Counted from the stretch's first letter, positions 7,548-64,000 are shown. The stretch is DNA of 64,000 nucleotides from Lachnospiraceae bacterium (GCA_013316825.1 WSLY01000011.1:1-64000); one strand, 5' to 3'. Notes: generated by a model from the sequence alone, not told the origin. A program made the numbers and translations.

Positions 7548-8606
7548 ATGTGCGGCTATACAGTTCCTAAACACTGCCCCACGGAAATGAGGATTTACTT
7601 GAAAAAAAATGTGTGGAAAAAATATATAAAAAGCCTGCCAAAGCTGACGCCGGCAGGGAAAAAAGCGCTTCTAAAATATGGCGCCATATTACTTTTTATT
7701 ATATTGGGATTTTCTCTTTTATCGCGCGCCCTGACCCATAACGGGCAGACGCTTGCCCAATACGGCGAAGCCAATCCCTCTCTGCAGGGAAGCCTTTCTG
7801 TTTCCGGCGGCGATGCAGCGCCTGCAGGCGGCAGCTCAGGCAATGCCGGCGTATCAGGAAACAGCGCGGACATGCTGACAGACAGTGCCGGTACTGATGC
7901 CGAAGACGGACAGGGAGATAACGGGCAGGAACATGAGGATACCGCATGGCAGGTCTCTGCAGATGGACTAACCGGCAATGGCGGTACAGAAAGCCCGAAA
8001 CGCGTTACCTACAAACCTGATTTTTATTACGAGCCCCTATCGGAAAACCTTATCGGCTACATCACAGGCTGTTCGTATCCTGATGATGATTCTGCTGAAA
8101 TCAGCCTGTCAGAATTAAACTATGTGCACATTCTGCATTATAATTTTGAGGGAAATATTGCAGAGGGAGAGTTAATCTGCAACAGTGCCATTGCACAGGA
8201 TTTGGTGGAAATTTTTTACGAGCTGTATACTGCTGAATACCGGCTTGAGCGGGTGCTGCTGATAGATTACTACGATGCGGATGACACCACCTCCATGATG
8301 GCAAACAATACTTCCTGTTTCAACTACCGGAATATAGACGACACGGACAAGCTGTCCCGACACGCCTTCGGTCTTGCCATAGATGTCAATCCTTTTTACA
8401 ATCCCTACATCCGCTTTACAAAAGACGGCGGTCAAATCATCTCACCGGAAAGCAGCGAAGCCTACGCCGACCGTACACAGAGCTTTCCTTACAAGATTGA
8501 CGCCGACGATTTGTGCTGCCGCCTCTTTTTGGAACATGGCTTTACATGGGGCGGAAACTGGAACTCCAGCAAAGATTACCAGCATTTTCAAAAAATAATA
8601 GATTAA
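7548..8606 (+). CDS. membrane-anchored M15-family (D,D-carboxypeptidase-like) peptidase
   Basis: One N-terminal TM, low-complexity linker, SRHAFGLAIDVNPFYNP and DYQHFQ zinc-ligand motifs. Start could be 7590. Confidence 0.85.
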   Translation: MCGYTVPKHCPTEMRIYLKKNVWKKYIKSLPKLTPAGKKALLKYGAILLFIILGFSLLSRALTHNGQTLAQYGEANPSLQGSLSVSGGDAAPAGGSSGNAGVSGNSADMLTDSAGTDAEDGQGDNGQEHEDTAWQVSADGLTGNGGTESPKRVTYKPDFYYEPLSENLIGYITGCSYPDDDSAEISLSELNYVHILHYNFEGNIAEGELICNSAIAQDLVEIFYELYTAEYRLERVLLIDYYDADDTTSMMANNTSCFNYRNIDDTDKLSRHAFGLAIDVNPFYNPYIRFTKDGGQIISPESSEAYADRTQSFPYKIDADDLCCRLFLEHGFTWGGNWNSSKDYQHFQKIID

Positions 8607-48597: not shown

Positions 48598-49683
48598 TCA
48601 GTCAGAACGCCTATAAAAATCTTCCATCATTCGAAACTCCTCAAAGGGAATGACAATATCCGTCGCCCCCTCTGCATAGGAAGCAAGCTCATAAACATCA
48701 TAGCTTAAGCCAATCCCGTCCCCCGTCAAACACATAACAGTTGCTCTCGTACATGCCATGAGCGCCCGGAAACCAGTAAGCTTCATGCGTCAGGTATAAC
48801 GAATTTACCCCCGCCGTGAACCCCTCGGGCAGCGTAATTTCTTCCCATTCCTCACTGTCCGCCGCAACCCGTCCCAGCCCGCCTTCCTCATTGTATACAA
48901 GAAAGAAACCAAAGTTTCTTGCACAGTAAGGAAACGTATAGCAGTCCGGATAATATTTCGACCGTGATACAGAATAGCCGTAGGGCATTGATGGTGGTAT
49001 CCTATAGGGCAGATCGGTGGTAATGTCAGCCGGTTCCACTTCTCCTGCCCCATTCAACCGATGACAAGTTATCTTATCTCCTCTCACCAAATATAAAACA
49101 TTCTCGCAAATATCCATCGTTAGATAGCTTTGATATTCGTATCCGTCGTAAAGCTGTCCGGCATCAGGCACATTCTCATCCAGCAAGGTAAGCTCCGTTC
49201 CATCCTTCCTTACCCTGTACAGCAGTATCTTTTTTCCGTAGGGGCTGATGTCCGGCACCTCCAAAAAATAAACCCAGTCGCCGTAAAGACAAAACCATTC
49301 GCCCCGCTGCTCGGAAGCCGCCTCATACAGTACGGTCCTTTCCAGCGTGTCCGCATCATACCGCCCCAGTATCCGTAAAAGTATCCGTCCTCCGTCTGCA
49401 CAAGCCTTCCCGTATTATCCTGAAAGTACGGCACGCTGCCAAAGACCGGCTCATTTTCCGCCCCGCCCGTTTCCTGCACAGCATTCTCTTTTCCGTCCGG
49501 CAGCCCTGCCATACAGCCATTTTCCCCGTCCGGCAGCCCTTCCACACCGCTGTCGAAGATGGAAGTCTCTTCCTTGTTTTCTTTGAAAGGCATCACACAT
49601 GCGGCAACTGCTGCCGTCATCAAGCAGGCTGATATAAAAAACACTGCTTTTTTCATCTGTATTCTCCTTTTCTTTTTAATCAC
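48598..49683 (-). pseudogene. decayed paralog of the 49764..51725 lipoprotein-like gene
   Basis: Three frame fragments (49210..49683, 48698..49264, 48598..48786) align in order with the intact neighbour: VPYFQDNTGRLVQTEDGYFYGYWGG, VPDISPYGKKILLYRV, YWFPGAHGMY, YDVYELASYAEGATDIVIPFEEFR. Confidence 0.88.
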
Positions 49684-49763
49684 TTTTTAGGCGTTTGCAA
49701 AACTCAGTAATTATTCTGTTGTCATTGTGCGCCTTGTATATTCTAACGCAGACGCGCTTCCGT

Positions 49764-51725
49764 CTATGGCATCATGCCCTCTTTTATCCGAAACGCCTCA
49801 TAGGGGATAATGATATCCTGCGCGCCGTCCGCATAACTGGAAAGCTCATAAACGTCAAAATGTATGCCGATGCCCTCCTCCGTTAGGAAAAAACGCTCCG
49901 GCTCCTGTGCAATTCCCTTTGCCTCCGACGGCAGTCCGCACAATTCCAGATATGTCGAAACAAGCGCCTCGACTTCTTCCTCTGTATTATCGACAAAGTC
50001 CAGAAGAGCAAGACGATCCCCCGTTCTTCTGTCAAACACGTAATAGTCATCCCAATACATGCCGTGCGCCCCCGGAGACCAGTAAGAATATTGCGATATA
50101 TCCACCACAAGGTACCTTTCACTTACATAGGATACAGACGCGCATATGGTGACAGTGCTTTCTTCTGCAACTGCCCTCTTCTCCTCTTCTTCTATATCCG
50201 GATTTTCTTCCAAAACCTTACAAAATACCTCATTTGCTTCTGCAAGAACCGCTTCATGCTCCCGATACAGTTTCTTTAAAAAAGCATTGATTTTTCTGTC
50301 TGCCTCCCCCTGTTCATACAAATACAGCTTGTCAAGCTGTGTGGGCAGGGCTATCACATCGCCCTTCGGCCCTGTCTTTACACTCTCTGTATAGCCAAGT
50401 TCATTCGTTTTATCCTCATCATAAATACATACAAGCTGCGGCCAAACATCCGCTCCTCGTTCCGCCTCTGCAAGCGGCAGCCGATAAATACTCCCGCCTT
50501 GCTCCGTCACAGCAAAATAGTACAAGTAATCTCCCAGCACAAAAAAACGCTTCATCGGAAATCCCATTGGGTATTCCGAGAAATAGTGTTCGCCCTCCAT
50601 GGAAAACAGGCAGGTACGCTCCCCCTCCCAGTTTATCCGGTAAAGCAGCCACACGCCCTGCTGCTCTTCTTCTCCTTCCATCCATGCCTCAAAGTACATG
50701 CCGCTTTCGTCATAACTGCAAAAGCGAAGCTCCTGCTCAGATTCATACCACACTTCCCACTCACTTTCGCTTTCCTGCCCGCGCCGCATCCAAATCTTTT
50801 GGTCCACACTGTAAAATAAAGAATTATGGGTAAACAGCAGATGGTCGGAATAACGCAGGCTTTCCGGCAGACCCGCCGTTATATTTTCCACGATTCCGCT
50901 TTCCGCATTCACGCGGATTAACCACCCATATTCCTCGCTGCAGGCAAAGAAATAGCCCAAGTTTCTCACACAGTAAGGAACCGACGGCATGTTCCAGTAA
51001 GAAAGGTAGGTGTCGCTTGTATGAGGCGCACGAAATCCTTCCGGCACCATGCCATACAGGGTATCCGCCATATCTATCCGCTCCACGCCGCCGTCCGGTT
51101 TTATCCGGTAGCAGACTACCGCTTCGTCATGCATCAGGTACAGAATATCTTTCTCTATGTCCATCGCCGTATACTGCCGATAGCTTGACCCGCCGGCATA
51201 CATACCCGTATCCGGCACATTTTCATCCAGCGCCGTAAGCCCTGTCCCGTCCTTTTTTACACGGTACAGGATACTCTTTTTCCCATAGGGACTGATATCC
51301 GGTATTTCCAGAAAATAAATATACGACTCGTCCATGCAGAACAGCCTGCCATTCTGCTCGGAAGCCGCCTCAAACAGCACTTCCCGTTCCAGTGTATCCG
51401 CATCATACCGCGCCAGCACACCGCCCCAATAACCGTAAAGATATCCGTCCTCCTCCTGTAAAAGCCCTCCCGTATCATCTCGAAAATACGGCACATCGGA
51501 AAAAGAGCTGCGCACTAAATAAGTGCGGCAGCTCTCAGACAAACCCTTTTTCTGCATATCCCATGCTGCCCGCAGGGATTCTCCCTGTCCGGTGACAGAA
51601 TCCCAATTTGCCACAGCAGCTCCCATCAAAAATACTGTTGCCCACAGCGCCGTTTTTTGCCACATCATATATTGCCTTACCCTTCTCTTTTGTCGCCTGA
51701 TTTTATCATACCTGATTTTTTCCAA
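49764..51725 (-). CDS. membrane-anchored propeller-like extracellular protein (unknown function)
   Basis: N-terminal TM anchor, repeated tyrosine/tryptophan-rich motifs (GYLYGYWGGVLARYDADT); paralog of adjacent pseudogene. Confidence 0.65.
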   Translation of the reverse strand: MEKIRYDKIRRQKRRVRQYMMWQKTALWATVFLMGAAVANWDSVTGQGESLRAAWDMQKKGLSESCRTYLVRSSFSDVPYFRDDTGGLLQEEDGYLYGYWGGVLARYDADTLEREVLFEAASEQNGRLFCMDESYIYFLEIPDISPYGKKSILYRVKKDGTGLTALDENVPDTGMYAGGSSYRQYTAMDIEKDILYLMHDEAVVCYRIKPDGGVERIDMADTLYGMVPEGFRAPHTSDTYLSYWNMPSVPYCVRNLGYFFACSEEYGWLIRVNAESGIVENITAGLPESLRYSDHLLFTHNSLFYSVDQKIWMRRGQESESEWEVWYESEQELRFCSYDESGMYFEAWMEGEEEQQGVWLLYRINWEGERTCLFSMEGEHYFSEYPMGFPMKRFFVLGDYLYYFAVTEQGGSIYRLPLAEAERGADVWPQLVCIYDEDKTNELGYTESVKTGPKGDVIALPTQLDKLYLYEQGEADRKINAFLKKLYREHEAVLAEANEVFCKVLEENPDIEEEEKRAVAEESTVTICASVSYVSERYLVVDISQYSYWSPGAHGMYWDDYYVFDRRTGDRLALLDFVDNTEEEVEALVSTYLELCGLPSEAKGIAQEPERFFLTEEGIGIHFDVYELSSYADGAQDIIIPYEAFRIKEGMMP

Positions 51726-51756: not shown

Positions 51757-54123
51757 TTAATCTTCCGAAAGCATCTTTACCGGTTCTATCCGGCGTATTC
51801 TTGCCGCACTGATAAAGCAAGAGGCAACTGCAATCACTAAAATTCCTAAAACCGTGACCCAAAGCCATACAGACGCAATCTGTATCTCGCATTTTTGAAT
51901 ACCAAAACCGGAGAGAAATACCGTGACAAGCCTGCTGATGCACACGCTCCCTATTGCAGCTCCCAAAATGGCTCCTGCCAGTATCACCGGTATATTGACA
52001 AGCAGCGTCTGCATAATAAGCTGCCCCGTCGTAAATCCAAGCGCCTTGTCGATGCCGTAATTCTTCCTTTCTTTTGTAATTTTCGCTTTTACCAAAAGCA
52101 GCTCCACCATAACCACTACTACAATCGTAATACTCACAAAAATAAGGCAAATCAGCTTCATTGCAAAACAAATCGTGAACATAGAATCCTCTGTCAGCTT
52201 TTCCGATTCAGAAATATTCAAATCCGGAAATGCCTCCGTCAGTTTTTGCTGCACATCCGCAAAAGAAATCCCCTCCTTCAGATACACGTAAAGCGTCACG
52301 GACGGCATTTCCCCATTCAGGCGCCGCGCACCCTCGCTGTTCATCATCGCCTTGATTCCGGCATTGTTAAATTTCTGGTCCACACCCGAAACCATATAGT
52401 CTTTACGTTCGCCGATACCCTCCGCGTAAATCATATCGCCTACCCCGACGGAAAGCCTTTCTGCCACTATCGTCGTTACCACAATCTCATTGTCATACAG
52501 TGGAAGCCGTCCCTCCAGCAGCATTTCATTTTTGATATCCTGCGGTGCATTGTATACGTCGCAGGTCAGGCTGATCTGCTCTTCTCTTTCATTATAAAGC
52601 CGAACAGAACAGTTATTGTAATAAAGCACCTTTTCTACCTCCTGCCAGTCCTCTAACAGCCTGCCCACGTCATCAAGATTTTCCCCCGTCACAAAAACAT
52701 CCCCTACTTCAAGACCGCTCATCTGCATGAGTTTATCCTGATTTGCCGCAAAATTCTGATACATGCCAAATCCGATTACCGTCACAAACGCCTGCAATGC
52801 AATAATACAAAATACTGACAGATTTTTTCGTTTCTCTCCCAATATGCTTTTTCCTGCAATGGCAAGGTTTTTCGGCAGCCTGCAGGTATGAAGCGGAAAA
52901 TGGTTTTTCTTAAAATTATGCGTGTGAACGCCGCCCCGCAGCGCGTCAAGCACCGTAACCCGGCCGTATACCCGCCCCGCCCAAAACGTTGTCAGGAAAA
53001 CTACGCCCAAAAGCATAAAAAGAGAAGTACCCGCTGCCGGCAGCGAAATCCCCATTTCCCAGCTAAGCCCCAACAGCATACCTTCCAGACTGCCAACCAG
53101 ACGGCTTCCCAGAACTCCGGCCAAAAGTCCAAGCACGCCGCCCAAAACGGCAATCCCCATCATTTCCAAAAGCAGCGCCGCCCGAAGCTGCACCGATGTA
53201 TATCCTGACGCTTTTAGAATGCCAATATTTTTCAAATTCAACTCCACAAAATCCCGTACGGAAAACCGGATGATAATAACCGCTACCGCCAGAATCAGAA
53301 CAGAAAACAAAAAAATAATACCCATCCCGATATCGGACATAATGGAAACACCATGGCTCATGGCTGTCCAGTTTAATCCCAAATTCATGCCATTTGCCAG
53401 CTCCGGAATTTCCTTCGTCAACAATAACGACACCTCTTCATCAAATCTCCACGCGCTTTCTCCTTTCTTCAAACGCGCCTTGTACTGACGGTAACAATAT
53501 TCTGCAATTGCCGGTTCCTCTTTCAGCATATCCCCCATACATGCATCCGTAATATAACAGCTGTAAATATTAATATTCAGAGGATTGGCAAAAAGCGGAT
53601 CGTCCACAAAGCCTGCCACCGTAAACCGGTACTCCTTCTCGTAGAGCGTCAGATAAATGGCATCACCGATTTCATATCTTCCCCCATATTTTAAATAGCT
53701 TGGCAGCAAAATCGCATCATAAGCGGGATTCTCCACCGCAGGTATCTGTCCAAGACGCCGTGTCTCTTCCATGGGCGCAAACAGAAAACCGTATTCCGCC
53801 GCTTCCATCTCCAAATCTTTCCGATACTTTGCGCCAATCACGTAGAGACAGCCGCCTGCTTCAAATTCCTCCACCTCTTCCAAATCCGTAAGCAGCGTTG
53901 TCAAGCGCTCTTCGCAGTCAATATTTGTCATATAAAACCAGTCCGGCGTATGCATCGCCTCGTATGCTTCCTCAATTACCCTTTCCGTTCCTGTCAGCAC
54001 CGATATGCTGACATACAAAAGCAATGCTGCAAGCGCCGTTAAAAACAGCAGGACAACCGTATCGCCTTTTTTCTTTTTGATATTGTTTTTGGCAATAAAC
54101 CACAGAGAACCCATCACTACCAC
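51757..54123 (-). CDS. FtsX-type ABC transporter permease
   Basis: Large ectodomain, NYGIDKALGFTTGQLIMQTLLVNIPVI and NIGILKASGYTSVQLRAALLLEMMGIAVLGGVLGLLAG repeats. Confidence 0.9.
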   Translation of the reverse strand: MVVMGSLWFIAKNNIKKKKGDTVVLLFLTALAALLLYVSISVLTGTERVIEEAYEAMHTPDWFYMTNIDCEERLTTLLTDLEEVEEFEAGGCLYVIGAKYRKDLEMEAAEYGFLFAPMEETRRLGQIPAVENPAYDAILLPSYLKYGGRYEIGDAIYLTLYEKEYRFTVAGFVDDPLFANPLNINIYSCYITDACMGDMLKEEPAIAEYCYRQYKARLKKGESAWRFDEEVSLLLTKEIPELANGMNLGLNWTAMSHGVSIMSDIGMGIIFLFSVLILAVAVIIIRFSVRDFVELNLKNIGILKASGYTSVQLRAALLLEMMGIAVLGGVLGLLAGVLGSRLVGSLEGMLLGLSWEMGISLPAAGTSLFMLLGVVFLTTFWAGRVYGRVTVLDALRGGVHTHNFKKNHFPLHTCRLPKNLAIAGKSILGEKRKNLSVFCIIALQAFVTVIGFGMYQNFAANQDKLMQMSGLEVGDVFVTGENLDDVGRLLEDWQEVEKVLYYNNCSVRLYNEREEQISLTCDVYNAPQDIKNEMLLEGRLPLYDNEIVVTTIVAERLSVGVGDMIYAEGIGERKDYMVSGVDQKFNNAGIKAMMNSEGARRLNGEMPSVTLYVYLKEGISFADVQQKLTEAFPDLNISESEKLTEDSMFTICFAMKLICLIFVSITIVVVVMVELLLVKAKITKERKNYGIDKALGFTTGQLIMQTLLVNIPVILAGAILGAAIGSVCISRLVTVFLSGFGIQKCEIQIASVWLWVTVLGILVIAVASCFISAARIRRIEPVKMLSED

Positions 54124-54872
54124 CCCATTTCCTCCAAAAACTTTTTCAACCTTTCATGCCTTTCCCCATCGCCGCTCTGATATGCGCCAAGCTGTAATTC
54201 TCCCGTAATTACGCCATCCTTTAAATACAGCACTCTGCTCCCGCGCCGCGCCGCCTTCATATCGTGCGTCACCATCACAATTGTCTGCCCGTTTTCATGA
54301 ATCTTCGTCAAAATATCCAGAAGCCGCCTCGTGTTCTCAGAATTTAGGGCGCCGGTCGGCTCGTCTGCAAAAAGTATCTCCGGTGCATTGATAATACCCC
54401 GCACCATCGCCGCGCGCTGCTGCTCACCGCCGGAAAGCTGCGTCGGAAATTTGTAAAAAGCATTTTCCGAAAGCCCGACTGCAAGAAGCAGCTTCTTCGC
54501 TTCCTCTGCAAGCTCCTTCCTGCCCCGTCCCGACAAAAAACCGCTTACCATAACATTGTCCAGAACACTCATGGTATCGTTTAAATAATTTTGCTGAAAC
54601 ACAAAACCACAGTGCTTTCTCCTGAAAACCGCAAGCTTATCATTTGTATATTTCGATATTTCTTCTCCCCTGTAGGAGATGCTTCCCAGCGTCGGTCTGT
54701 CCATACCCGACAGCGCATACAACAGCGTGCTCTTTCCGGAGCCGGAGTTTCCCATAATAACGGCAAACTCTCCCCTCTCCACCGTCAGATTCAGATTTTT
54801 TAACACATGCTGCTGCACGCTTTCATTTGAAAATGTCTTGCACAAATCCTTAGCCGTAAGTATTGCTTCCAT
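54117..54872 (-). CDS. ABC transporter ATP-binding protein (MacB/LolD-like)
   Basis: MGNSGSGKSTLLYALSGMDRPT, LSGGEQQRAAMVRGI, LFADEPTGALNSENT. Confidence 0.94.
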   Translation of the reverse strand: MEAILTAKDLCKTFSNESVQQHVLKNLNLTVERGEFAVIMGNSGSGKSTLLYALSGMDRPTLGSISYRGEEISKYTNDKLAVFRRKHCGFVFQQNYLNDTMSVLDNVMVSGFLSGRGRKELAEEAKKLLLAVGLSENAFYKFPTQLSGGEQQRAAMVRGIINAPEILFADEPTGALNSENTRRLLDILTKIHENGQTIVMVTHDMKAARRGSRVLYLKDGVITGELQLGAYQSGDGERHERLKKFLEEMGW

Positions 54873-55042
54873 ATCCGCTCCCATCTGCGCTGCTTTTATC
54901 CTGCCAGCCGTAAGGCTTACGGATTTGCGCCTCCCGTATACGGGGCTGCAGCGCACAGGCGCAAATCCTATGGGGAATTCTCCCCAGGCATCTCCATTAT
55001 AAAATGCAGCATTTAAAAAATCTTAAGCCGATTCCTGTTTAT

Positions 55043-55060
55043 TTCTTAACTGATTCTTAA
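55043..55060 (-). promoter_or_regulatory. OmpR-type direct repeat upstream of ABC operon
   Basis: ttcttaa-ctga-ttcttaa, 11-bp phased; minus-strand TATAAT -10 at 54996..55001 downstream. A second similar sequence lies at 59736..59752. Confidence 0.55.
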
Positions 55061-55160
55061 ATAAGGCGGTTTTTTGAGATTTTTCATTCTCCGGCGTATC
55101 TAAAGAAACCCTTTATTTATGGGCTTTTTCCCACATTTTCATTTTTTCTTTCATGCCGCT

Positions 55161-56135
55161 TTAAATTCTACTAGTGACATTACTAGTGACACTTTTCTTT
55201 GCCATATCCTCCAGTGCCACCCGCTCTGTTGAGCTGGTCCATGTTGTACTAAAACGCCCTGCGCCGTTTCCCCTTATACCCCTGCTGTAAATGTTGTTAT
55301 ATTCCGGAAGGAACGAACGTAGCAGCATGGAAGCCCTCGAAAGGCGGAGCCTGCGCAGCGCCTTTTGCTCTACGCTCCTAACCTTTGCCTCACCGACTCC
55401 TGTGCATGCGCCAATTTCCCGATAGGTACGCCTGCTACAATACCTCTGCCGCAGGACAAAACCCTGTTCAGCCGGCAGCCTGTCTACCTGAACCCACAGT
55501 ATACGGGCAAGCTGTTCACGCTGCAGCCGTTCCAGCACATCTATTTCCAAATTATCGGCAGCAGGCAGCAGTTCTCCCAGCTCCCTATTATGGCTGCTGC
55601 CGGCAGCAGGCGCTTCTAGGCTCTCCGCCCTTTCCATGGCGGCAAACCTTTCCAGTTCCCTTACATGGCTTACGGGCACACCCATTCTTTTAGCTGCTTC
55701 CTCCCTTGTAGGCGCCCTGCCGGCACATAGAAGGAATGCATTGAAAAACTCTTTATACCCTATAAGCTCCTTTACCGCATAATCCGGCATGCTGGCGGTA
55801 TTGCCTGCCGCTTGTGCATATCGGGACAGGCGGCGCTTTATCAGGTATCCCGCATAGGTAATGAACTGGCACCCGCGCCCCGAATCGTACCCCTCTACGG
55901 CGTCATACAGGGCAAGAAAGCCTTCCTGTGTTATGATGTAAATGCGTAAAGTGCCTATATCTCCTTTCCCTTCCGGTTGGGCTGCATATAGGTGCGTAGT
56001 GTGTGTTACCGGTTTCCGGTAACCGCCCCGTGGGAAGGTGGTGCTTCTTACGGGGCTTTTTCTTTTGTTCCGGTTCTGCCCTGCGGAAGGTGGTGCTTCC
56101 TGCAGGATGCCTTGTCCTGACTGATTATTTTTCAT
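55161..56135 (-). CDS. sigma-70-family-like protein (regions 2-4), N-terminus uncertain
   Basis: TQEGFLALYDAVEGYDSGRGCQFITYAGYLIKRRLSRYAQ (region 2), EEAAKRMGVPVSHVRELE (region 3), LPAEQGFVLRQRYCSRRTYREIGACTGVGEAKVRSVEQKALRRLR (region 4). Confidence 0.82.
   Translation of the reverse strand: MKNNQSGQGILQEAPPSAGQNRNKRKSPVRSTTFPRGGYRKPVTHTTHLYAAQPEGKGDIGTLRIYIITQEGFLALYDAVEGYDSGRGCQFITYAGYLIKRRLSRYAQAAGNTASMPDYAVKELIGYKEFFNAFLLCAGRAPTREEAAKRMGVPVSHVRELERFAAMERAESLEAPAAGSSHNRELGELLPAADNLEIDVLERLQREQLARILWVQVDRLPAEQGFVLRQRYCSRRTYREIGACTGVGEAKVRSVEQKALRRLRLSRASMLLRSFLPEYNNIYSRGIRGNGAGRFSTTWTSSTERVALEDMAKKSVTSNVTSRI
55170..55196. repeat. left direct repeat / putative att site
   Basis: ACTAGTGACATTACTAGTGACACTTTT; 26/27 identical to 59667..59693. 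Confidence 0.88.
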
Positions 56136-56304
56136 TCGTCATCAGGTACGAATGGACTGTTTACTACTTGCCGTTCCTCTCCTGCCTGCTTTGGCAGCAG
56201 CCTTATGGAATGTGGTGCTTCCAAGTAAGGCGCTTCTCCTTTCCCTTCCGCTTGTGCCGTCATGCACTGCTGCCGCCTGACCCTTTCTGTGCGGCGTCGC
56301 ACTA

Positions 56305-56517
56305 CTATTCGATGATTTCTGTTACGTCCACACCCAGAGCGGCGGCTATCTTTCCCAAAGTGGCAATTTTACAGCCACCTTGCTTCATAATGCGGCGGTA
56401 TGCCGCATAGCTGATACCTGCGGAACTGCAGAGGTCATAAGGATTCATGGATTTTCTTGCCATTGCAAGCTGAACTTTGTCCTGACTGATTTTTAGGTTA
56501 GACATTACTGTTGACAT
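56305..56517 (-). CDS. small XRE/Cro-type HTH protein
   Basis: KVQLAMARKSMNPYDLCSSAGISYAAYRRIMKQGGCKIATLGKIAAALGVDVTEIIE. Confidence 0.85.
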   Translation of the reverse strand: MSTVMSNLKISQDKVQLAMARKSMNPYDLCSSAGISYAAYRRIMKQGGCKIATLGKIAAALGVDVTEIIE

Positions 56518-56545
56518 TTGTTTTCCTCTCTTTCTAAGAAAATTA

Positions 56546-56629
56546 TTGACAGAACAATTTTGTTCTGATATACTTATTTTACAGTACATTTTTGTTCTTG
56601 TCAATACCATTTTAGTACATTTTTGTTCT
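56546..56629. promoter_or_regulatory. divergent promoter region with three 16-bp operator-like sites
   Basis: AGAACAATTTTGTTCT (56551), AGTACATTTTTGTTCT (56583), AGTACATTTTTGTTCT (56614). Plus promoter TTGACA-17-TATACT and minus promoter TTGACA-17-TAAAAT each contain a site in the spacer. Confidence 0.82.
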
Positions 56630-56679
56630 TTATATTTTCGTTTAATTATGCTATGCTACATTTACGGAGGCTTAGCATA

Positions 56680-57090
56680 ATGACAGTTGGTGAAAAAATT
56701 AAAGAACTACGGATACAAAAGGGTATGACACAAAAAGAGCTAGGTAAAAAGTGCGGTTTTGCTGATTCTGCTATAAGGCGTTATGAGTTGGGCAATGCCA
56801 ATCCCAAGCTTGAAACCATTCAAAAGATATCCAATGCTTTAGAAGTTCCCATATGGACACTTTTAGGTATATCAAAGCAGGAAGCCGTACTGGCTTACGA
56901 AAATGATTATTTCAACAAAACCGAATACGAAACTTCTGAATTATCACCAATGATAAAAAACAATATAATTCAAGAAGCCCGATTCAACAAACTAAAGAAC
57001 GCCTACAACTCGTTAAATGATTCAGGACAGCAGGAAGCAATAAAGCGAGTAAAGGAACTAACTGAAATCAGGCGTTACACTGAAAAATAG
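56680..57090 (+). CDS. XRE-family repressor 1
   Basis: MTVGEKIKELRIQKGMTQKELGKKCGFADSAIRRYELGNANPKLETIQKISNALEVP. Confidence 0.93.
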   Translation: MTVGEKIKELRIQKGMTQKELGKKCGFADSAIRRYELGNANPKLETIQKISNALEVPIWTLLGISKQEAVLAYENDYFNKTEYETSELSPMIKNNIIQEARFNKLKNAYNSLNDSGQQEAIKRVKELTEIRRYTEK

Positions 57091-57142
57091 CACCATGACA
57101 ATGTACTGTTGCCATTTGATTACCTTGTTTTCTTTTTTTGTC

Positions 57143-57227
57143 TTGACAGATGAAAAATCATCTGTTACAATATATACTATCAGATGACTTTTTATCTGTC
57201 AAGGTTTTTTTAGATGATTTTTTATCT
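57143..57227 (+). promoter_or_regulatory. promoter with three 16-bp operator-like sites (second family)
   Basis: TTGACA-17-TACAAT; AGATGAAAAATCATCT (57148), AGATGACTTTTTATCT (57182), AGATGATTTTTTATCT (57212). Confidence 0.83.
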
Positions 57228-57274
57228 TCTCTATGTTATAGTGTAGTAAGTAAGTAAGCAACAGGAGGCACACT

Positions 57275-57679
57275 ATGACAGCAGGCGAACGGATAAAAGC
57301 AGCACGAAAAAAAAATAATCTTACGCAAAAAGCACTTGGTGAAAAATGCAATATGCCAGATTCTCAAATAAGGCAATATGAACTTGGTATGGTAACTCCT
57401 AAGCTAGATACCTTACGCCGAATAGCTACCGCCTTAAATATTCCTATTAGTGACTTAATTGGCGATTGGAACGATTATTCTTATGATGAACTTAAAAAAG
57501 ATTCTATGAGAAATACTGTCCAACTTGATGAATTAACCGAATGTATAAGAAAAGGTCGAATAGATACAATAAATAGTTTTCTAGACTTGATGAATGATGA
57601 AGGTCAAAAAAAAGCCGTAGAACAAGTAGAGTTGCTTACCAAAATACCAGAGTTTCAAAAAGAAAATCCATATCAATAA
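57275..57679 (+). CDS. XRE-family repressor 2
   Basis: MTAGERIKAARKKNNLTQKALGEKCNMPDSQIRQYELGMVTPKLDTLRRIATALNIP. Confidence 0.93.
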   Translation: MTAGERIKAARKKNNLTQKALGEKCNMPDSQIRQYELGMVTPKLDTLRRIATALNIPISDLIGDWNDYSYDELKKDSMRNTVQLDELTECIRKGRIDTINSFLDLMNDEGQKKAVEQVELLTKIPEFQKENPYQ

Positions 57680-57781
57680 TTTTGTGACTTTCATTAAACC
57701 ATGACAATATAATATACTTACCAAGGAGCCGGAGGGGCGACACATTCCAGCCACCTACTACATAGAAAGGAGCTGGTGCCG

Positions 57782-57868
57782 GTGATAACATGGATAGACC
57801 TTTTTACATTTATCATCATGCTTTGTGCTGTTATAACCCTTGTCAGAAATGATAAGCATAAAAAATAG
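57782..57868 (+). CDS. type I toxin, putative holin-like/Fst-type peptide, copy 1
   Basis: GTG-start VITWIDLFTFIIMLCAVITLVRNDKHKK (alternative GTG at 57776); hydrophobic single helix plus basic tail; RBS aaaggag; not in ORF track. Confidence 0.82.
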   Translation: MITWIDLFTFIIMLCAVITLVRNDKHKK

Positions 57869-57955
57869 CGCCCTCTCCCTGACAAGGTAGGCGCTATTTT
57901 GTAGTACTGACTTGCCGGGGTGGCTGGGACGAATCCAGCTTCCGGCTCCCTTGTT
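57865..57955 (-). ncRNA. candidate antisense antitoxin RNA 1
   Basis: Minus promoter TTGACT-17-TATAAT at 57962..57990 pointing into the toxin 3' end; shared hairpin aatagcgcc...ggcgctatt. Confidence 0.72.
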
Positions 57956-58085
57956 AAGTATATTATAGGTCACACACCGTCAAAAGTCAAACAAAACCGC
58001 ACCATGACAATATGATATGATTACCAGGGGAGCCGAAGGGGCGATATGCCAGCAGCCGGACGTTTAAGGAAGGGAGCTGGTGCCA

Positions 58086-58175
58086 ATGGTTACATACAGC
58101 GATTTATTCACTTTTGTAATTATGCTTTGCGCGGTTATAACTCTTGTTTTAACTCTAAAGAAACGCAAAAAATAA
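58086..58175 (+). CDS. type I toxin, putative holin-like/Fst-type peptide, copy 2
   Basis: MVTYSDLFTFVIMLCAVITLVLTLKKRKK; RBS ggaag/ggag upstream; not in ORF track. Confidence 0.85.
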   Translation: MVTYSDLFTFVIMLCAVITLVLTLKKRKK

Positions 58176-58258
58176 GCGCCCTCGCTCTGACAAAGTAAGG
58201 CGCTTATTTTTTTAGCTATACTCTGCCGGCGGCTAGGTGTATTCTAGCTTTCGGCTCT
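58173..58258 (-). ncRNA. candidate antisense antitoxin RNA 2
   Basis: Minus promoter TTGACA-17-TATAAT just downstream (complement of attata...tgtcaa near 58270-58300); hairpin aataagcgcc...ggcgctta with T-run. Confidence 0.74.
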
Positions 58259-58462
58259 CTTGTTAAGCATATTATAGCAGTACGGCGGTTTATTGTCAAT
58301 AAAATACTGCGGCTCCCGCGCCAACGGGAACCGCACCGATAGGACTATACAGGCACTTGCAGCCGGTATATATGCCACCTCACAGGCATATTATACCATT
58401 CCTGCACCTGTTTTGTACAGGTGTATTTTTTATACCCTTCTTGCAGATAGGAGCGTGATAGA

Positions 58463-59635
58463 ATGCCACTAACCCAATGCCCCGAGTGTGCCGGCAAAAT
58501 AGGCAGCAGGGCTTTCCTATGCCCGCATTGCGGCTTTCCCCTGCTGCCTGCTGCCAGCAAGTATACAGGCAGGCAGTCAAGGAAGCGCCGCCCCAACGGG
58601 TCCGGTACAGTAGTAAAAATGTCCGGCAGGCGTAAAAACCCGTACCAGGTACGCGTAAATACCCATATCAATGAGGACGGCTACCCTGTTTATGACGTGC
58701 TTGCAAGCTATCCGGACAGGGTAAGCGCAGAGATTGCCCTTGCGGAATACAACAAGGCGCCATATAACCCACAGGACAGAAAGAAGCTGTTCAGCGAGGT
58801 ATTTGCTTCATGGTATCTCTGGAAGTACAAGGAACCCATCACGGCAGCAGGCAAAAAGACCAGCTCCCAATACTGTACCGTGTCAGCATACAGGAAATGC
58901 CCCACCCTCCACAATATGCCCATGTGGGACATACGCGCGGTTGACCTGCAGGCACTTCTTGACAATCAGGAGCTTTCACATGCCATGCTGGAGCATATGC
59001 GGAACCTGTTTAGGCAGATGTACAAATACGCCATACAATTCGAGCTGGTGCCGAAAGACTATTCGCAGTATGTGACGATAAGCAAGGCTGATGATGACGT
59101 GCATGGCGTCCCATTTACGCCTGATGAACTGCGGGCACTATGGGCGCACAGGGAAATCCCATTTGTAGATACCGTCCTGATATACTGCTACTCCGGTTTC
59201 CGGATTAACGAGCTTGCAGGCATGCCGCTTGATGATATCGACCTTATAGGGCGCACCTTCACGGGCGGGCTGAAAAACCGCTACAGCCGTAACAGGACTG
59301 TCCCTATCCATTCCGCCATCTATGACATGGTATGCCGCAGGTATAACCGGCAGTTCCCGAGCCTCATATACCACACAGCAACGGACAGCATAACCGAGCC
59401 GCGCTACAGGGAATACTTTAACAGCGCCCTGCTCTCCTGCGGTATCACTACAGGGCATACGCCCCACGACTGCAGGCACACCTTCAATGTACTGCTTGAC
59501 CGTGCCGGCGTTGAAAGAACCGTCCGCTATAAACTCATGGGGCATAAGGGACAGGACATCAACGAAAATGTATATACACACAAGGATTTAGACCAGCTCA
59601 GGGCAGCAGTCGAAGCGATAAAGGCAGGGGCATAA
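58463..59635 (+). CDS. tyrosine recombinase/integrase with N-terminal zinc ribbon
   Basis: CPECAGKIGSRAFLCPHCGFPL zinc ribbon; catalytic SGFRINELAG, HDCRHTF, LMGHKG, VYTHKDL. Confidence 0.93.
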   Translation: MPLTQCPECAGKIGSRAFLCPHCGFPLLPAASKYTGRQSRKRRPNGSGTVVKMSGRRKNPYQVRVNTHINEDGYPVYDVLASYPDRVSAEIALAEYNKAPYNPQDRKKLFSEVFASWYLWKYKEPITAAGKKTSSQYCTVSAYRKCPTLHNMPMWDIRAVDLQALLDNQELSHAMLEHMRNLFRQMYKYAIQFELVPKDYSQYVTISKADDDVHGVPFTPDELRALWAHREIPFVDTVLIYCYSGFRINELAGMPLDDIDLIGRTFTGGLKNRYSRNRTVPIHSAIYDMVCRRYNRQFPSLIYHTATDSITEPRYREYFNSALLSCGITTGHTPHDCRHTFNVLLDRAGVERTVRYKLMGHKGQDINENVYTHKDLDQLRAAVEAIKAGA

Positions 59636-59666
59636 CGCAGGCTAATGCGCTGTACCCCTGTTTTTT

Positions 59667-59693
59667 ACTAGTGACATTACTAGTGGCACTTTT
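59667..59693. repeat. right direct repeat / putative att site
   Basis: ACTAGTGACATTACTAGTGGCACTTTT. Confidence 0.88.
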
Positions 59694-59866
59694 TCTCAAG
59701 AATGCCGTATTTACTGAATTTCCAGCGATTTTCGGTTTAACTGATTCTTAAACAGCCCTGTTTTTGAGGGTTTTCTTTTTTGCGGGCTTTTCAAAATTTT
59801 CTTTTTAGAGAAATTATGATAATATGCAGACCCCATGAAAACTCATCTGCAGCATAAGCGTCCCCC

Positions 59867-60226
59867 TCATTCCAGTTCCCCGACAATCTGCCTCAGCTTG
59901 TCAATCTGCTCCGCCGAAAGCTTTTTCCTGCCAAGCAGCGCTGCAAACAATTTGTCGGCACAACCGTCGTAAATCTTATTTATCAATTCATTCGTCTCCG
60001 CCTCCTGCACCTGCTCCTTCGGTATCAGCGCATGGCACATAAAATTCGGTTCGGAGCGCGCAATCGCACCCTTTTTGATACATCTCTTAATCAGCGTATA
60101 CGTTGTGTTTATATTCCAACCCGTTTCCTCTCCCAAAACGCCCGCTATATACTTGGCTGTACAATCCCCCTCCCGCCAGAGCACACCCATCACTTTAAGC
60201 TCTGCGTCAAACAATTTGATATCCAT
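59867..60226 (-). CDS. BlaI/MecI/CopY-family repressor
   Basis: LFDAELKVMGVLWREGDCTAKYIAGVLGEETGWNINTTYTLIKRCIKKGAIARSEPNFMCHALI. Confidence 0.9.
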   Translation of the reverse strand: MDIKLFDAELKVMGVLWREGDCTAKYIAGVLGEETGWNINTTYTLIKRCIKKGAIARSEPNFMCHALIPKEQVQEAETNELINKIYDGCADKLFAALLGRKKLSAEQIDKLRQIVGELE

Positions 60227-60259
60227 CCGTTTCTTCTCCTCCTCTTTTCTCTAAAACAC

Positions 60260-60318
60260 ATAAGACTGCGGTAGTATATTTGTGCCTGTATACTACCGCA
60301 GTCTTATATGCTTGTCAA
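60260..60318 (-). promoter_or_regulatory. promoter with perfect 19-bp inverted-repeat operator
   Basis: ATAAGACTGCGGTAGTATA-10 bp-TATACTACCGCAGTCTTAT (60260..60307); minus promoter TTGACA (60313..60318)-17-TAGTAT (60290..60295) overlaps it. Confidence 0.82.
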
Positions 60319-60319
60319 T

Positions 60320-61201
60320 TTATTTTACTTTTTCATAAAAAGCAAACAGTTCTTCCAACGAATGATTCTGCAGGATGGGGACTGCCTGCCAAATCAATTC
60401 CCTATCCCAATCCCACCATCTTATCTCCAGCAGTTTTTGAATATCCGTATCGCAAAACCTTTTCTTTATCGGTTTTGCCGGTACGCCCCCGACAATGGTA
60501 TATGGCTCTACATCCTTCGTCACACATGCATTTGCAGCAATAACGCTCCCATCGCCAATGGTGACGCCGGACATAATCTTCGCGCCGCCCGCTATCCATA
60601 CGTCATTTCCAATCGTAATATCTCCTTTTGAACATGGATGTCCGGTTATATAGGAAAACTCCGGCATAATTGCGTTGAACGGGTATGTGGTACACCAGTC
60701 CGTCCGGTGTCCTCCCCCCAGCACGATTCTCACATCAGGACCTATGGAACAAAATTTCCCTATTTTCAGCCTTGTATCATCCCCATAATCCTCTATTGTG
60801 GGGATTCCATAGGTAAAATCGCCAACCTCGATATGAGGGCTGCCGTATACACTTTGATTTCTTTGCCGCAGCCTCTGCGCAAAGTAATCCATTTTAAGGC
60901 GGGGAGGCAGAAATTCTACAATTTCAATCTCCATCTTGATTGTTTCAGGCGGAAACTGCCGCAGGCACAAAATGCGGTGGTATTTCCTGTTCAGACTCAT
61001 ATCGCTGCATAAAAAAACAATATCATAACAAGGAAGTACTGCTTCCATTTCCGACACCGATTTTATTTCACATTCGAACAAGTCAGAGCTTGTTCTGTCC
61101 TCTGTCATCACAAGCTCCAGTTCAAACAGCTCTTCCGCACACGAGAGCCACTTTAACAGGCGTTCCATATCATCCATTTTTCCAATTAACAATGTTTTCA
61201 C
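60320..61201 (-). CDS. CatB/Vat-like O-acetyltransferase with extra N-terminal domain
   Basis: Left-handed beta-helix hexapeptide repeats: IGKFCSIGPDVRIVLGGGHRTDWCTTYPF, GNDVWIAGGAKIMSGVTIGDGSVIAANACVTKDVEPYTIVGGVPAK. Confidence 0.9.
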   Translation of the reverse strand: MKTLLIGKMDDMERLLKWLSCAEELFELELVMTEDRTSSDLFECEIKSVSEMEAVLPCYDIVFLCSDMSLNRKYHRILCLRQFPPETIKMEIEIVEFLPPRLKMDYFAQRLRQRNQSVYGSPHIEVGDFTYGIPTIEDYGDDTRLKIGKFCSIGPDVRIVLGGGHRTDWCTTYPFNAIMPEFSYITGHPCSKGDITIGNDVWIAGGAKIMSGVTIGDGSVIAANACVTKDVEPYTIVGGVPAKPIKKRFCDTDIQKLLEIRWWDWDRELIWQAVPILQNHSLEELFAFYEKVK

Positions 61202-61248
61202 AGTCTCACATTCCTCCCGCCGCAGATTCCTTCTGTTTTTCGCTGCCG

Positions 61249-62511
61249 CTACACCTTTTTGACATACAGTCTCACAAAAAATCCCTCGTCATTGCCGTAT
61301 TCCATGCCGCCTCCCATCCGCTCCATAAACATTTTGGCAAGATACAGCCCAAGTCCGGCGCCTTCTTTTCCCCGTGCATTCTCCCCTCGGTAAAACTTTT
61401 CGCACAGCAATGCCAATTCTTCCTCCGGCACGCCGCAGCCCTTGTCCTGAATCAGAATATACACCCCGTCATCAGCCTCTTTAAAGGAAACCGTTACGAC
61501 ACCGCCCGCGTATTTAAACGCATTGTTCACGATATTATCTATGACTTGAGACAGCCGCATCCTGTCAATATGTACAAGGCATTCGGGAATCCTGTTTAAC
61601 AGCAGGATTTCTCCATAATAGCGCAGCTCGGCAAACATTTCTTCAATCACGAGCGAGCTTTCCTCCGCCGGCTCCACCCGCAGCACCTCCAGTTCTTCAA
61701 GCGTCGCTTTTAACATATTATCCGTCAGCTTCTCCATCATCTTTGCCTTGGCTGCAATAACTGCCACCTTCTCTAACGTATCCTGATTTTTCTCCTTGAC
61801 CTGTATTACCTCGCACGCCGCCTTGATTGTGGCAATCGGCGTCTTCATGTCATGAGACAGCCCTGCCGTCAGCTCCTTTTTACTTTTGTTGGCACGATAT
61901 TCGCTCTCCTTCGCCCGCTTGAGCTCCTCTCGCATCATATCGAAGCTCTCCGTAAACGCACCAAACGTATTGTGTTTTTCCATGGGAAGCAGAAACTCCA
62001 GATTTCCTTTTGCAATCTGCGCCGCAAATATTTTCAGACGCACAAAGGGGCGGACAAACCAAAACCACACTGCAAACAACAAAAGGAACCCTGCCGCCAG
62101 AAAGAGAAGGCAAAAAAACAGACTGCCCCGCATAAGCGACTGCCTCGACTCTTCCCACAAGACGGCACTGTCATTCCATGCCGCCTTTCCTACGAGTTCT
62201 CCTTTTTCATAATAGTCCAGTATCACCGCTCCTGACTGCAGCAGTTCATTCATCTGCAGCTTATAGTCCTTGTCAGTAAAAAGAAGAAGTCTGCAGCCCA
62301 GCCTTTCCGCCCCGTCTCTCCCCTCTTTCGCAACACATTCCGACAGCATTTGCATTCTCTCATTAAATAATAGCGTATCCCGCGCCCTGTATTCCGCTTT
62401 AGAACATATCGAAAACAGGAAAAACAGTGCGCATGCTGTCACGGCAATATGCATCAGCACCAAATATCTTATCTTCAATGGTATCCCTCGCCTCACATTC
62501 CCTCTGCACAA
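61249..62511 (-). CDS. two-component sensor histidine kinase
   Basis: GLSHDMKTPIATI H-box, NIVNNAFKYAGG N-box, GAGLGLYLAK G-box. Confidence 0.94.
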   Translation of the reverse strand: MCRGNVRRGIPLKIRYLVLMHIAVTACALFFLFSICSKAEYRARDTLLFNERMQMLSECVAKEGRDGAERLGCRLLLFTDKDYKLQMNELLQSGAVILDYYEKGELVGKAAWNDSAVLWEESRQSLMRGSLFFCLLFLAAGFLLLFAVWFWFVRPFVRLKIFAAQIAKGNLEFLLPMEKHNTFGAFTESFDMMREELKRAKESEYRANKSKKELTAGLSHDMKTPIATIKAACEVIQVKEKNQDTLEKVAVIAAKAKMMEKLTDNMLKATLEELEVLRVEPAEESSLVIEEMFAELRYYGEILLLNRIPECLVHIDRMRLSQVIDNIVNNAFKYAGGVVTVSFKEADDGVYILIQDKGCGVPEEELALLCEKFYRGENARGKEGAGLGLYLAKMFMERMGGGMEYGNDEGFFVRLYVKKV

Positions 62512-62535
62512 TAAAACGCTGCAAAAGCCTCTTTG

Positions 62536-63291
62536 TCAAGTGTCAGTGGACAGCATATACCCTACTCCCCATACTGTCTGAATCAGCTTCGGTTCGCCGG
62601 GATTTTCTTCCAGCTTCTCCCGCAGCTTGCGGATGTGCACATTGAGCGTACCGTCACCATAGCATTCATCTCCCCATACCGCCAGAAAAAGCTTTTCCTT
62701 TGTCACAATTTTATTCCGGTTATCATAAAGACATTGCAGCAGGGCAAACTCTTTCGCCTTAAGCTGCACCCGCCTGTCTCCTATCACAGCCGAAAGCGTC
62801 TCTTCCGACAAAGACAGGCTCTGACTGCCGCCGTCCTTTGGCTTTTCCTCACATCCGACGCAGACCTTTCCCTCGCCGCCTGACTCCCCGCCACGTGCCG
62901 ATACCGTCCGCCCCGCTTCCATGGCACGCTGCATCCGGTTTAAAAGCACCTTCACCTTGGCAAGCAGTACGCTTAAGGAATAGGGTTTTTTGATATAATC
63001 GTCGCCGCCTATGTTGAGCGCAATCAGCACATCATCATCGCTCTGTCTTGCACTGATAAAAAGTATGGGCATATCTGTCTGCTCCCGCAGCCGTTTGCAG
63101 AGTGTAAAACCGCTCTCCTCGGACAAATTGATATCAAGCAGCAGAATATCCACCGTATTCTGCTCCAAAAAAGCAAGACACTCCTGCGCACTTTTTACAA
63201 ATGCGCAGGAGGTGTCAAACATATTAAAATATTCACATGTCATTTCAGCCAGTTCTATTTCGTCGTCCACAAGCAGGCAATTATAATGCAT
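62536..63291 (-). CDS. OmpR/PhoB-family response regulator
   Basis: LLVDDEIELAEM, DILLLDINLSEESG, KKPYSLSVLLAKV, winged-helix C-terminus NKIVTKEKLFLAVWGDECYGDGTLNVHIRKLREKL. Start may be 63303. Confidence 0.94.
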   Translation of the reverse strand: MHYNCLLVDDEIELAEMTCEYFNMFDTSCAFVKSAQECLAFLEQNTVDILLLDINLSEESGFTLCKRLREQTDMPILFISARQSDDDVLIALNIGGDDYIKKPYSLSVLLAKVKVLLNRMQRAMEAGRTVSARGGESGGEGKVCVGCEEKPKDGGSQSLSLSEETLSAVIGDRRVQLKAKEFALLQCLYDNRNKIVTKEKLFLAVWGDECYGDGTLNVHIRKLREKLEENPGEPKLIQTVWGVGYMLSTDT

Positions 63292-63346
63292 GGTATCCTC
63301 CATTACAAAGCGTTGCCCTACAAAAGGCACGTTCTTCCTTCTTTTC

Positions 63347-64000
63347 TCAGTATTCGGAACCAAGCACCGCCAGCTTCTCTTTGATTTCATTTGCCGTTCC
63401 CAGAATCATGCTGACGGATGCCGCAATCTCCTGTGCCGCAGCCGCAAGCGTCTGTGTCCTTCCGTTCACGCCGTCTACGGTGTCTAAAAGCTTGCGTGTA
63501 TCTGTGATGATACTGCTGACCGAATGCATAATCCTGCCCTGACTGGCATTGCTGCGTGTTGCCGTATCCCTTGATTCGGTAGCCAGCTTGTTGATTTCGT
63601 CCGCCACCACAGCAAATCCTCTGCCGGCCTCTCCTGCCCGCGCCGCCTCTATATTGGCATTGAGCGCAAGAAGATTGGTCTGCGAAGCAATACTGACAAC
63701 TTCATCATTATTTTGCGCAAGCTCCTTCAGGAAATCACTGATTTCATCCATAGAACGCGACAACGCTTCACAGAAAGCTGTGACATCTTTGATATCCGAG
63801 GAAATCTCTGCACTGTCCGCCGCATTGTTTTCGTTGCCCGCCGCCATATCGTCAACCGATTGGTACAAAACATCAAACTCCTGATTGATTTCCTGCAGGG
63901 TGTGCAGTATCAGCTCCTTCTGCTCCTCGATATGCTGCTTATCCGCCGCAAGCTGGGCAGCCAGCTTTTCAGCCGTCGCCTTCTGCTCTTCCACTTCTTT
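63347..64000 (-). CDS. methyl-accepting chemotaxis protein, partial at right edge
   Basis: [44 protein letters not shown]. Confidence 0.92.

What the first reader, a model, noticed from the sequence alone, without database searches (positions are those of the whole stretch)
55170..59693. Compact ~4.5 kb integrative element without visible transfer or replication genes
27-bp direct repeats (26/27 identical) bound a module of a zinc-ribbon tyrosine recombinase, a sigma-70-like protein, three XRE-type regulators and two type I toxin-antitoxin loci. No relaxase, replication protein, capsid or obvious Xis is present. It looks like a minimal self-maintaining island: integrase, regulatory switch and addiction modules. 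Seen: repeats and ORFs. Inference: the repeats are attL/attR and the island is an independent unit.
Basis: partly seen in the sequence, partly recalled or inferred. Interest (0 to 1): 0.72.

Follow-up and report, generated by a model that had tools for sequence, protein, structure and literature searches.

The report
Shrunken phage-satellite element in gut bacterium
The 4.7-kb island is a real mobile element, but it is not a minimal self-sufficient one: it is a phage-satellite element that has lost about 6 kb of replication and packaging genes, its true ends lie outside the repeats first proposed, and it sits in a promoter box upstream of a transporter operon.

Summary
The repeats and ORFs are real (26/27 identical repeats; intact tyrosine integrase; three HTH regulators; sigma-70-like ORF; two toxin-like small loci). 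The interpretation needs two corrections.

(1) The 27-bp repeats are not attL/attR. In 8 of 8 related elements a second, target-specific direct repeat lies outside them at a fixed distance (left 123-125 bp, right 67-71 bp). In the window it is TTAACTGATTCTTAAA at 55046-55061 and 59737-59752, so the element is 4,691 bp. An empty site for a relative's element, found in the window's own genome, has the outer repeat once and no 27-bp repeat. A circular 9.4-kb relative has one core flanked by both 27-bp sites, which are best read as integrase arm-type sites.

(2) It is not a primordial minimal island. Intact relatives (8.6-14 kb) carry Erf, DnaD- and DnaC-like loaders, an intact sigma factor and, variably, TerS, capsid plus scaffold, or tape-measure protein, in the PICI gene layout. 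The window copy has a TTCCTG microhomology deletion at 55922-55928 that removed about 6.4 kb and beheaded the sigma gene.

Verdict: internally deleted member of an apparently undescribed PICI-like satellite family of Acetatifactor-type Lachnospiraceae that inserts into promoter regions.

The parts
55046..55061 (+). attL core, outer direct repeat TTAACTGATTCTTAAA (true left end of the element)
   Evidence: Exact 16-bp repeat of 59737-59752; 124 bp from the inner site, as in 7 other elements; 0/1000 shuffles reach it; same box once in relatives without the element
59737..59752 (+). attR core, outer direct repeat TTAACTGATTCTTAAA (true right end)
   Evidence: 70 bp from the inner site
55170..55196 (+). 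Left inner 27-bp repeat, tandem 12-mers ACTAGTGACATT ACTAGTGACACT; probable integrase arm-type site
   Evidence: role inferred from fixed distance to the core and retention in the circular form
59667..59693 (+). Right inner 27-bp repeat; probable integrase arm-type site
   Evidence: role inferred
55161..56135 (-). Truncated sigma-70-like ORF: native residues end near 55925; the first 67 residues are read-through of regulatory DNA
   Evidence: intact relatives start MTNEEL.. and have a complete region 2
55922..55928 (.). Deletion junction at shared TTCCTG; about 6.4 kb lost relative to L076
56305..56610 (-). Small HTH_26 regulator, divergent partner of the repressor
   Evidence: conserved in L076 (89% aa, dN/dS 0.05)
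56623..57090 (+). XRE/RstR-like regulator (likely start ATG 56681), the probable master repressor
   Evidence: conserved in L076
57275..57679 (+). Second XRE regulator
   Evidence: no same-position homologue in L076, only ~40%-identical XRE proteins in relatives
57698..57968 (+). Toxin-like locus 1: 28-aa hydrophobic ORF 57782-57868, terminator, opposed promoters
   Evidence: no family hit
58001..58281 (+). Toxin-like locus 2: 29-aa hydrophobic ORF 58086-58175; this unit is widespread in the genus
58463..59635 (+). Tyrosine integrase, 390 aa, intact
54117..54956 (-). Host ABC-transporter ATPase gene just left of the element (target side)
59867..60226 (-). Host BlaI/MecI-like repressor gene just right of the element

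Best explanation
The feature is an internally deleted copy (4,691 bp) of an 8.6-14 kb phage-satellite family (PICI-like layout) found in Acetatifactor-type Lachnospiraceae. Shown by comparison: the tyrosine integrase family joins a core of form TTAA-N7-TTAA in the element circle to a similar core in a host promoter region, leaving the core duplicated at both ends. Inferred: the integrase also binds the two subterminal 27-bp sites (arm-type), which lie about 124 bp and 70 bp inside the cores. Inferred from gene layout: a divergent regulator pair holds the intact element silent until a helper phage relieves it; it then excises, replicates with its Erf/DnaD/DnaC module and is packaged through its own TerS or capsid proteins. 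The window copy kept integrase, switch, arm sites, cores and toxin-like loci. It lost the replication and packaging module, and its sigma gene was beheaded, by a deletion at a TTCCTG microhomology. It can probably still recombine but cannot replicate or package itself without help.
For: Outer repeats at fixed offsets in 8/8 elements, beyond chance in 5 of 7 tested. Empty site G000:C10 with the 34-bp core once and no inner site. Circular contig L149 with one core between two inner sites. The window target box occurs once in five relatives without the element there. Deletion junction with microhomology. Full-length relatives carry Erf, DnaD-like, DnaC-like, TerS, capsid, scaffold, tape-measure and sigma genes. 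Layout matches the PICI description in PMC6092414.
Against: Phage induction, packaging and a helper are not shown. Two relatives plus the circle carry a capsid gene, which classical PICI definitions exclude. The outer repeats of L037 and G059 are imperfect and not significant alone. The arm-site role rests on geometry; the AlphaFold model is poor (mean pLDDT 43).
Confidence: 0.8

Rival explanations
1. One reading: a complete minimal island (integrase, switch, addiction modules) bounded by the 27-bp repeats as attL/attR.
For: The 27-bp repeats are real and paired with the integrase; the integrase and regulators are intact.
Against: An empty site and a circular form place the crossover in the outer core; the sigma gene is truncated at a deletion junction; two other short copies have interrupted integrases, so shortness goes with decay.
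Confidence: 0.04
2. The family are decayed prophages rather than satellites.
For: Phage-type genes, including capsid and tape-measure proteins, are present.
Against: Several independent elements share a compact PICI-type layout with TerS or single structural genes but no large terminase, portal or lysis gene in the families searched; a circular relative exists; no listed phage carries an integrase of 60% identity or more, best 35%.
Confidence: 0.11
3. The deletion junction at 55922-55928 is an assembly chimera in the MAG; the real element is full length.
For: The genome is a 73%-complete MAG and no reads were available; the retained sigma part is still open.
Against: The junction lies inside a contig of at least 64 kb, the shared sequence is only 6 bp, and the whole-element DNA search found no second copy in the genome.
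Confidence: 0.05

Closest known systems
Gram-positive phage-inducible chromosomal islands (PICI/SaPI)
   Same: Integrase transcribed with the repressor, divergent regulator pair, replication genes on the other side, TerS in some members; accessory genes between int and repressor (PMC6092414)
   Different: Smaller (8.6-14 kb), sigma-70 gene beside attL, Erf plus DnaD/DnaC-like replication genes; capsid or tape-measure genes in some; insertion in promoter regions; helper dependence untested
SaPIbov5-type (cos) SaPIs with the capsid homologue Ccm
   Same: A satellite carrying a major-capsid homologue without the rest of the head genes (PMC8569155)
   Different: Here the capsid gene comes with a scaffold gene in L041 (and a DUF4355-like ORF in L149), is absent from L076/L040, and its action is unknown
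Heterobivalent tyrosine integrases (lambda Int, Tn916/Tn1549 Int)
   Same: Core sites at the ends plus distant directly repeated sites inside the element; closest solved relative is Tn1549 Int; arm/core logic as in PMC4880445
   Different: N-terminal Zn-ribbon-like stretch; arm binding not shown; the core including its N7 is duplicated (one mismatch in L037 and in G059)
PICMI minimalist satellites of Vibrionaceae (PMC10803314)
   Same: Small satellite with reduced gene content (abstract)
   Different: Different host group; the window copy is small by deletion, not by design

Membership tests
PICI-like phage satellite | Divergent regulator pair with integrase on the repressor side | tested here: met
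   Window 56305-56610(-), 56623-57090(+), int 58463-59635(+); same in L076
PICI-like phage satellite | Replication genes transcribed opposite to the repressor | tested here: not met
   Met in L076, L040, L041 and L149, lost by deletion in the window copy
PICI-like phage satellite | terS (only some PICIs) | tested here: not met
   Present in relative L076 (PF03592), absent from the window copy
PICI-like phage satellite | No phage structural or lytic genes | tested here: inconclusive
   Window, L076, L040: none seen; L041, L042, L149 have a capsid gene and G059 a tape-measure gene
PICI-like phage satellite | Specific att sites never occupied by prophages | tested here: inconclusive
   Specific cores found; prophage occupancy not surveyed
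PICI-like phage satellite | Induction, packaging and transfer by a helper phage | not testable with these tools
   Needs culture; only a circular contig in a viral collection was found
Integrative and mobilizable/conjugative element | Relaxase, oriT or T4SS genes | tested here: not met
   None among the proteins scanned from the window element or the intact relatives, nor in the ORF lists read; oriT not searched
Heterobivalent tyrosine integrase with arm-type sites | Core at crossover plus distant repeated sites at fixed spacing within the element | tested here: met
   8/8 elements and the circle
Heterobivalent tyrosine integrase with arm-type sites | N-terminal domain that binds the distant sites | tested here: inconclusive
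   Strand-strand-strand-helix at 49-96 in a low-confidence model; no Pfam hit there

The most novel reading that the evidence does not exclude
A satellite family whose integrase has adopted direct-repeat boxes of OmpR-type response regulators (TTAA-N7-TTAA) in promoters as its attachment site. It inserts in one orientation upstream of the next gene and regenerates the box, and its members swap single helper-phage structural genes (TerS, capsid plus scaffold, tape-measure) in the late region near attL.
Probability: 0.35. Interest if true: 0.68.

Novelty: new variant of a known kind. Interest (0 to 1): 0.52.

Why it matters
It gives a base-level definition of a satellite family in Lachnospiraceae (cores, inner sites, one empty site, one circular form); the searches of the held literature that combined satellite or PICI terms with Lachnospiraceae or Clostridia turned up no description of it. 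It shows how matching repeats near both ends can mislead att calling when they are arm-type sites. It suggests a target rule (promoter boxes, several next to two-component/ABC operons) that can be tested genome-wide, and shows that a short 'minimal island' can be a deletion derivative that may ride on intact relatives.

Tried and rejected
27-bp repeats as att: rejected by spacing, empty site and circle. tRNA target: no tRNA gene in the window. Second copy in the own genome: none found. Exact search of IMG/VR for the 27-bp motif: no hits, so the circle was found only through the integrase. Rfam scan of the element: nothing credible. AlphaFold of the integrase: too poor for a fold search. Order-wide integrase survey at 1e-90: only the window genome and one distant match, G471, in 392 genomes drawn evenly from the order, so the family looks narrow. 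Literature searches for this family and for an integrase aimed at response-regulator boxes: nothing matching; full coverage is not claimed. One search was an empty placeholder script.

Full report
Observation. The sequence is as described: two 27-bp direct repeats, 26/27 identical, at 55170-55196 and 59667-59693, with a tyrosine integrase, three HTH regulators, a sigma-70-like ORF and two small hydrophobic-peptide loci between them. A scan of 146 relatives for the 19-bp heart of the repeat found pairs only in genomes that also hold the same integrase, so the repeats belong to the element and are not chance.

Relatives. Searches with the element and with the integrase gave relatives in the same genus, which includes Acetatifactor muris DSM 23669 (identified by equal contig length, L034/G041). 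They are bounded by the same inner sites but most are larger (core to core): L076 (G146) 10.5 kb, L040 (G017) 10.9 kb, L041 (G040) 9.7 kb, L042 (A. muris) 8.6 kb, G059 14.1 kb. Two are short and have interrupted integrase frames, L037 3.6 kb and L045 3.1 kb. Among the large ones, on the strand opposite to the repressor, are an Erf annealing protein, DnaD-like and DnaC-like loaders, a sigma factor of PHROG 351 and variably a terminase small subunit (L076, PF03592 1.1e-38), a major head protein (L041, L042, L149) with a scaffold protein (L041), or a tape-measure protein (G059, a fragment in L037). Not every member has every gene. Gene order matches the Gram-positive PICI layout described in PMC6092414. 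No relaxase, portal, large terminase or lysis gene appeared in the families searched or ORF lists read.

The window copy is a deletion derivative. Against L040 and L076 the window aligns in two pieces that meet at 55922-55928: the left piece matches the sigma gene, the right piece the leader of the replication operon, with TTCCTG shared. About 6.4 kb is missing relative to L076. The sigma ORF has lost about 48 native N-terminal residues and its first 67 residues are read-through of regulatory DNA; the Pfam region-2 match starts only at profile position 26, against position 2 in the intact relative. Integrase and switch genes are intact with dN/dS 0.05-0.13 against L076, though that divergence may mostly predate the deletion.

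True ends. Outside the inner repeats each of eight elements has a second direct repeat, different between elements except the pair L076/L040, which share a site, at 123-125 bp (left) and 67-71 bp (right) from the inner site. In window, L076, L041, L042 and L045 it is longer than in any of 1000 shuffles; in L037 and G059 it is imperfect and not significant alone, but lies at the same offsets. All fit TTAA-N7-TTAA, G059 being the loosest (TTTA-N7-TTTA). Joining the L076 flanks at this repeat gives a sequence found uninterrupted in the window's own genome at G000:C10 (86% over 1002 bp, the 34-bp core exactly once, no 27-bp site) and contiguous at 70-72% in five further genomes. For the window site, five relatives without the element there have the same box TTAACTGATTCTTAAA once, upstream of the same kind of ABC gene; a sixth, G186, has it with two changes. 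The sequence right of the box differs between these relatives, so this is an empty target box rather than a base-for-base empty site. Finally, IMG/VR contig L149 has a 46-bp terminal overlap, hence is probably circular at 9,407 bp, and carries integrase end - inner site - one core - inner site - sigma gene: an attP.

What the 27-bp sites do. Each is a tandem 12-mer. Fixed distance from the core, conservation while cores vary, and retention on both sides in the circle are the geometry of arm-type sites of heterobivalent integrases such as lambda Int (PMC4880445); the closest solved relative is Tn1549 Int (6emy, with the name Tn1549 from my own knowledge, the entry says 'Int protein'). Binding is inference; the structure prediction is too weak to prove an arm domain.

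Target. In six independent sites with a readable left neighbour (window ABC, L041 ABC, L042 response regulator, L076 LTA-synthase-like, L037 DUF2975-like, L045 GntR-like; the last four named by inspection of the translations only) the core lies roughly 60-175 bp upstream of a gene reading away from the element, always on the attL side. In the window, relatives show the box in an array of TTAA half-sites next to a response regulator/kinase/ABC cluster. I infer that the target is an OmpR-type regulator box which the insertion regenerates; this is untested, and one CTTAA-N7-TTAA match per window is what chance gives.

Toxin-like loci. DNA of the second locus matches in about 20 genomes of the genus, and in G027, G175 and G017 lies at the same ABC promoter without the element, so the loci are common accessory passengers rather than a defining part. 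They show an RBS, a short hydrophobic ORF, a terminator hairpin and opposed promoters, but family support is weak.

Mechanism proposed. Intact elements: repressor-held switch; excision by integrase using arm and core sites; replication by the Erf/DnaD/DnaC module; packaging into helper particles by TerS or capsid redirection as SaPIbov5 Ccm does (PMC8569155); sigma factor perhaps as late-gene activator. Integration geometry and deletion are supported by sequence; induction, helper and packaging are inference. The window copy probably recombines if its switch opens, but depends on others for replication and spread.

Novelty. The kind (phage satellite) is known; this family, its promoter-region targeting and its changing structural-gene slot were not found in the held literature, which is not complete.

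Noticed in passing
L077 (G026:C18) position 8202: A lone inner site followed by a sigma-gene end, again upstream of an ABC/FtsX operon, about 1.7 kb from a contig end: probably another, partly assembled element or a remnant.
   Followed up: partly
G059:C31:269-4162 (L078 and L043) and L037:4911-5393: Satellite-type elements carry a tape-measure protein (fragment in L037) beside attL, in place of the sigma or capsid genes seen in relatives.
   Followed up: partly
window 58001-58281; L142, L143, L148: The toxin-like unit is widespread in the genus and also sits at the same ABC promoter in genomes that lack the element.
   Followed up: partly
G000:C10 (L141 position 1535): The target used by the elements of G146 and G017 is empty in the window's own genome, and its core is identical over 34 bp.
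   Followed up: yes
window 59867-63390 and relatives L143, L144: The stretch between the histidine kinase and the ABC operon varies between relatives: BlaI-like plus acetyltransferase in the window, acetyltransferase only in G186, a toxin-like unit in G175.
   Followed up: partly
window 56026-56222; L076 and L040: Short repeats near GGAAGGTGGTGCTTCC, with GGAAG/CTTCC ends, occur three times in the leader of the lost replication operon and recur in relatives, also near the DnaC-like gene: origin iterons or hairpins, unexplained.
   Followed up: no
window 48698-51725: A 653-aa ORF (49764-51725) is followed by a second, apparently frame-broken copy (49210-49683 and 48698-49264): a duplicated gene with one copy decaying.
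   Followed up: no
window 57275-57679 versus L076: The second XRE regulator has no counterpart at the same position in L076, although the flanking regulator and toxin-like loci match closely, which suggests module exchange.
   Followed up: partly
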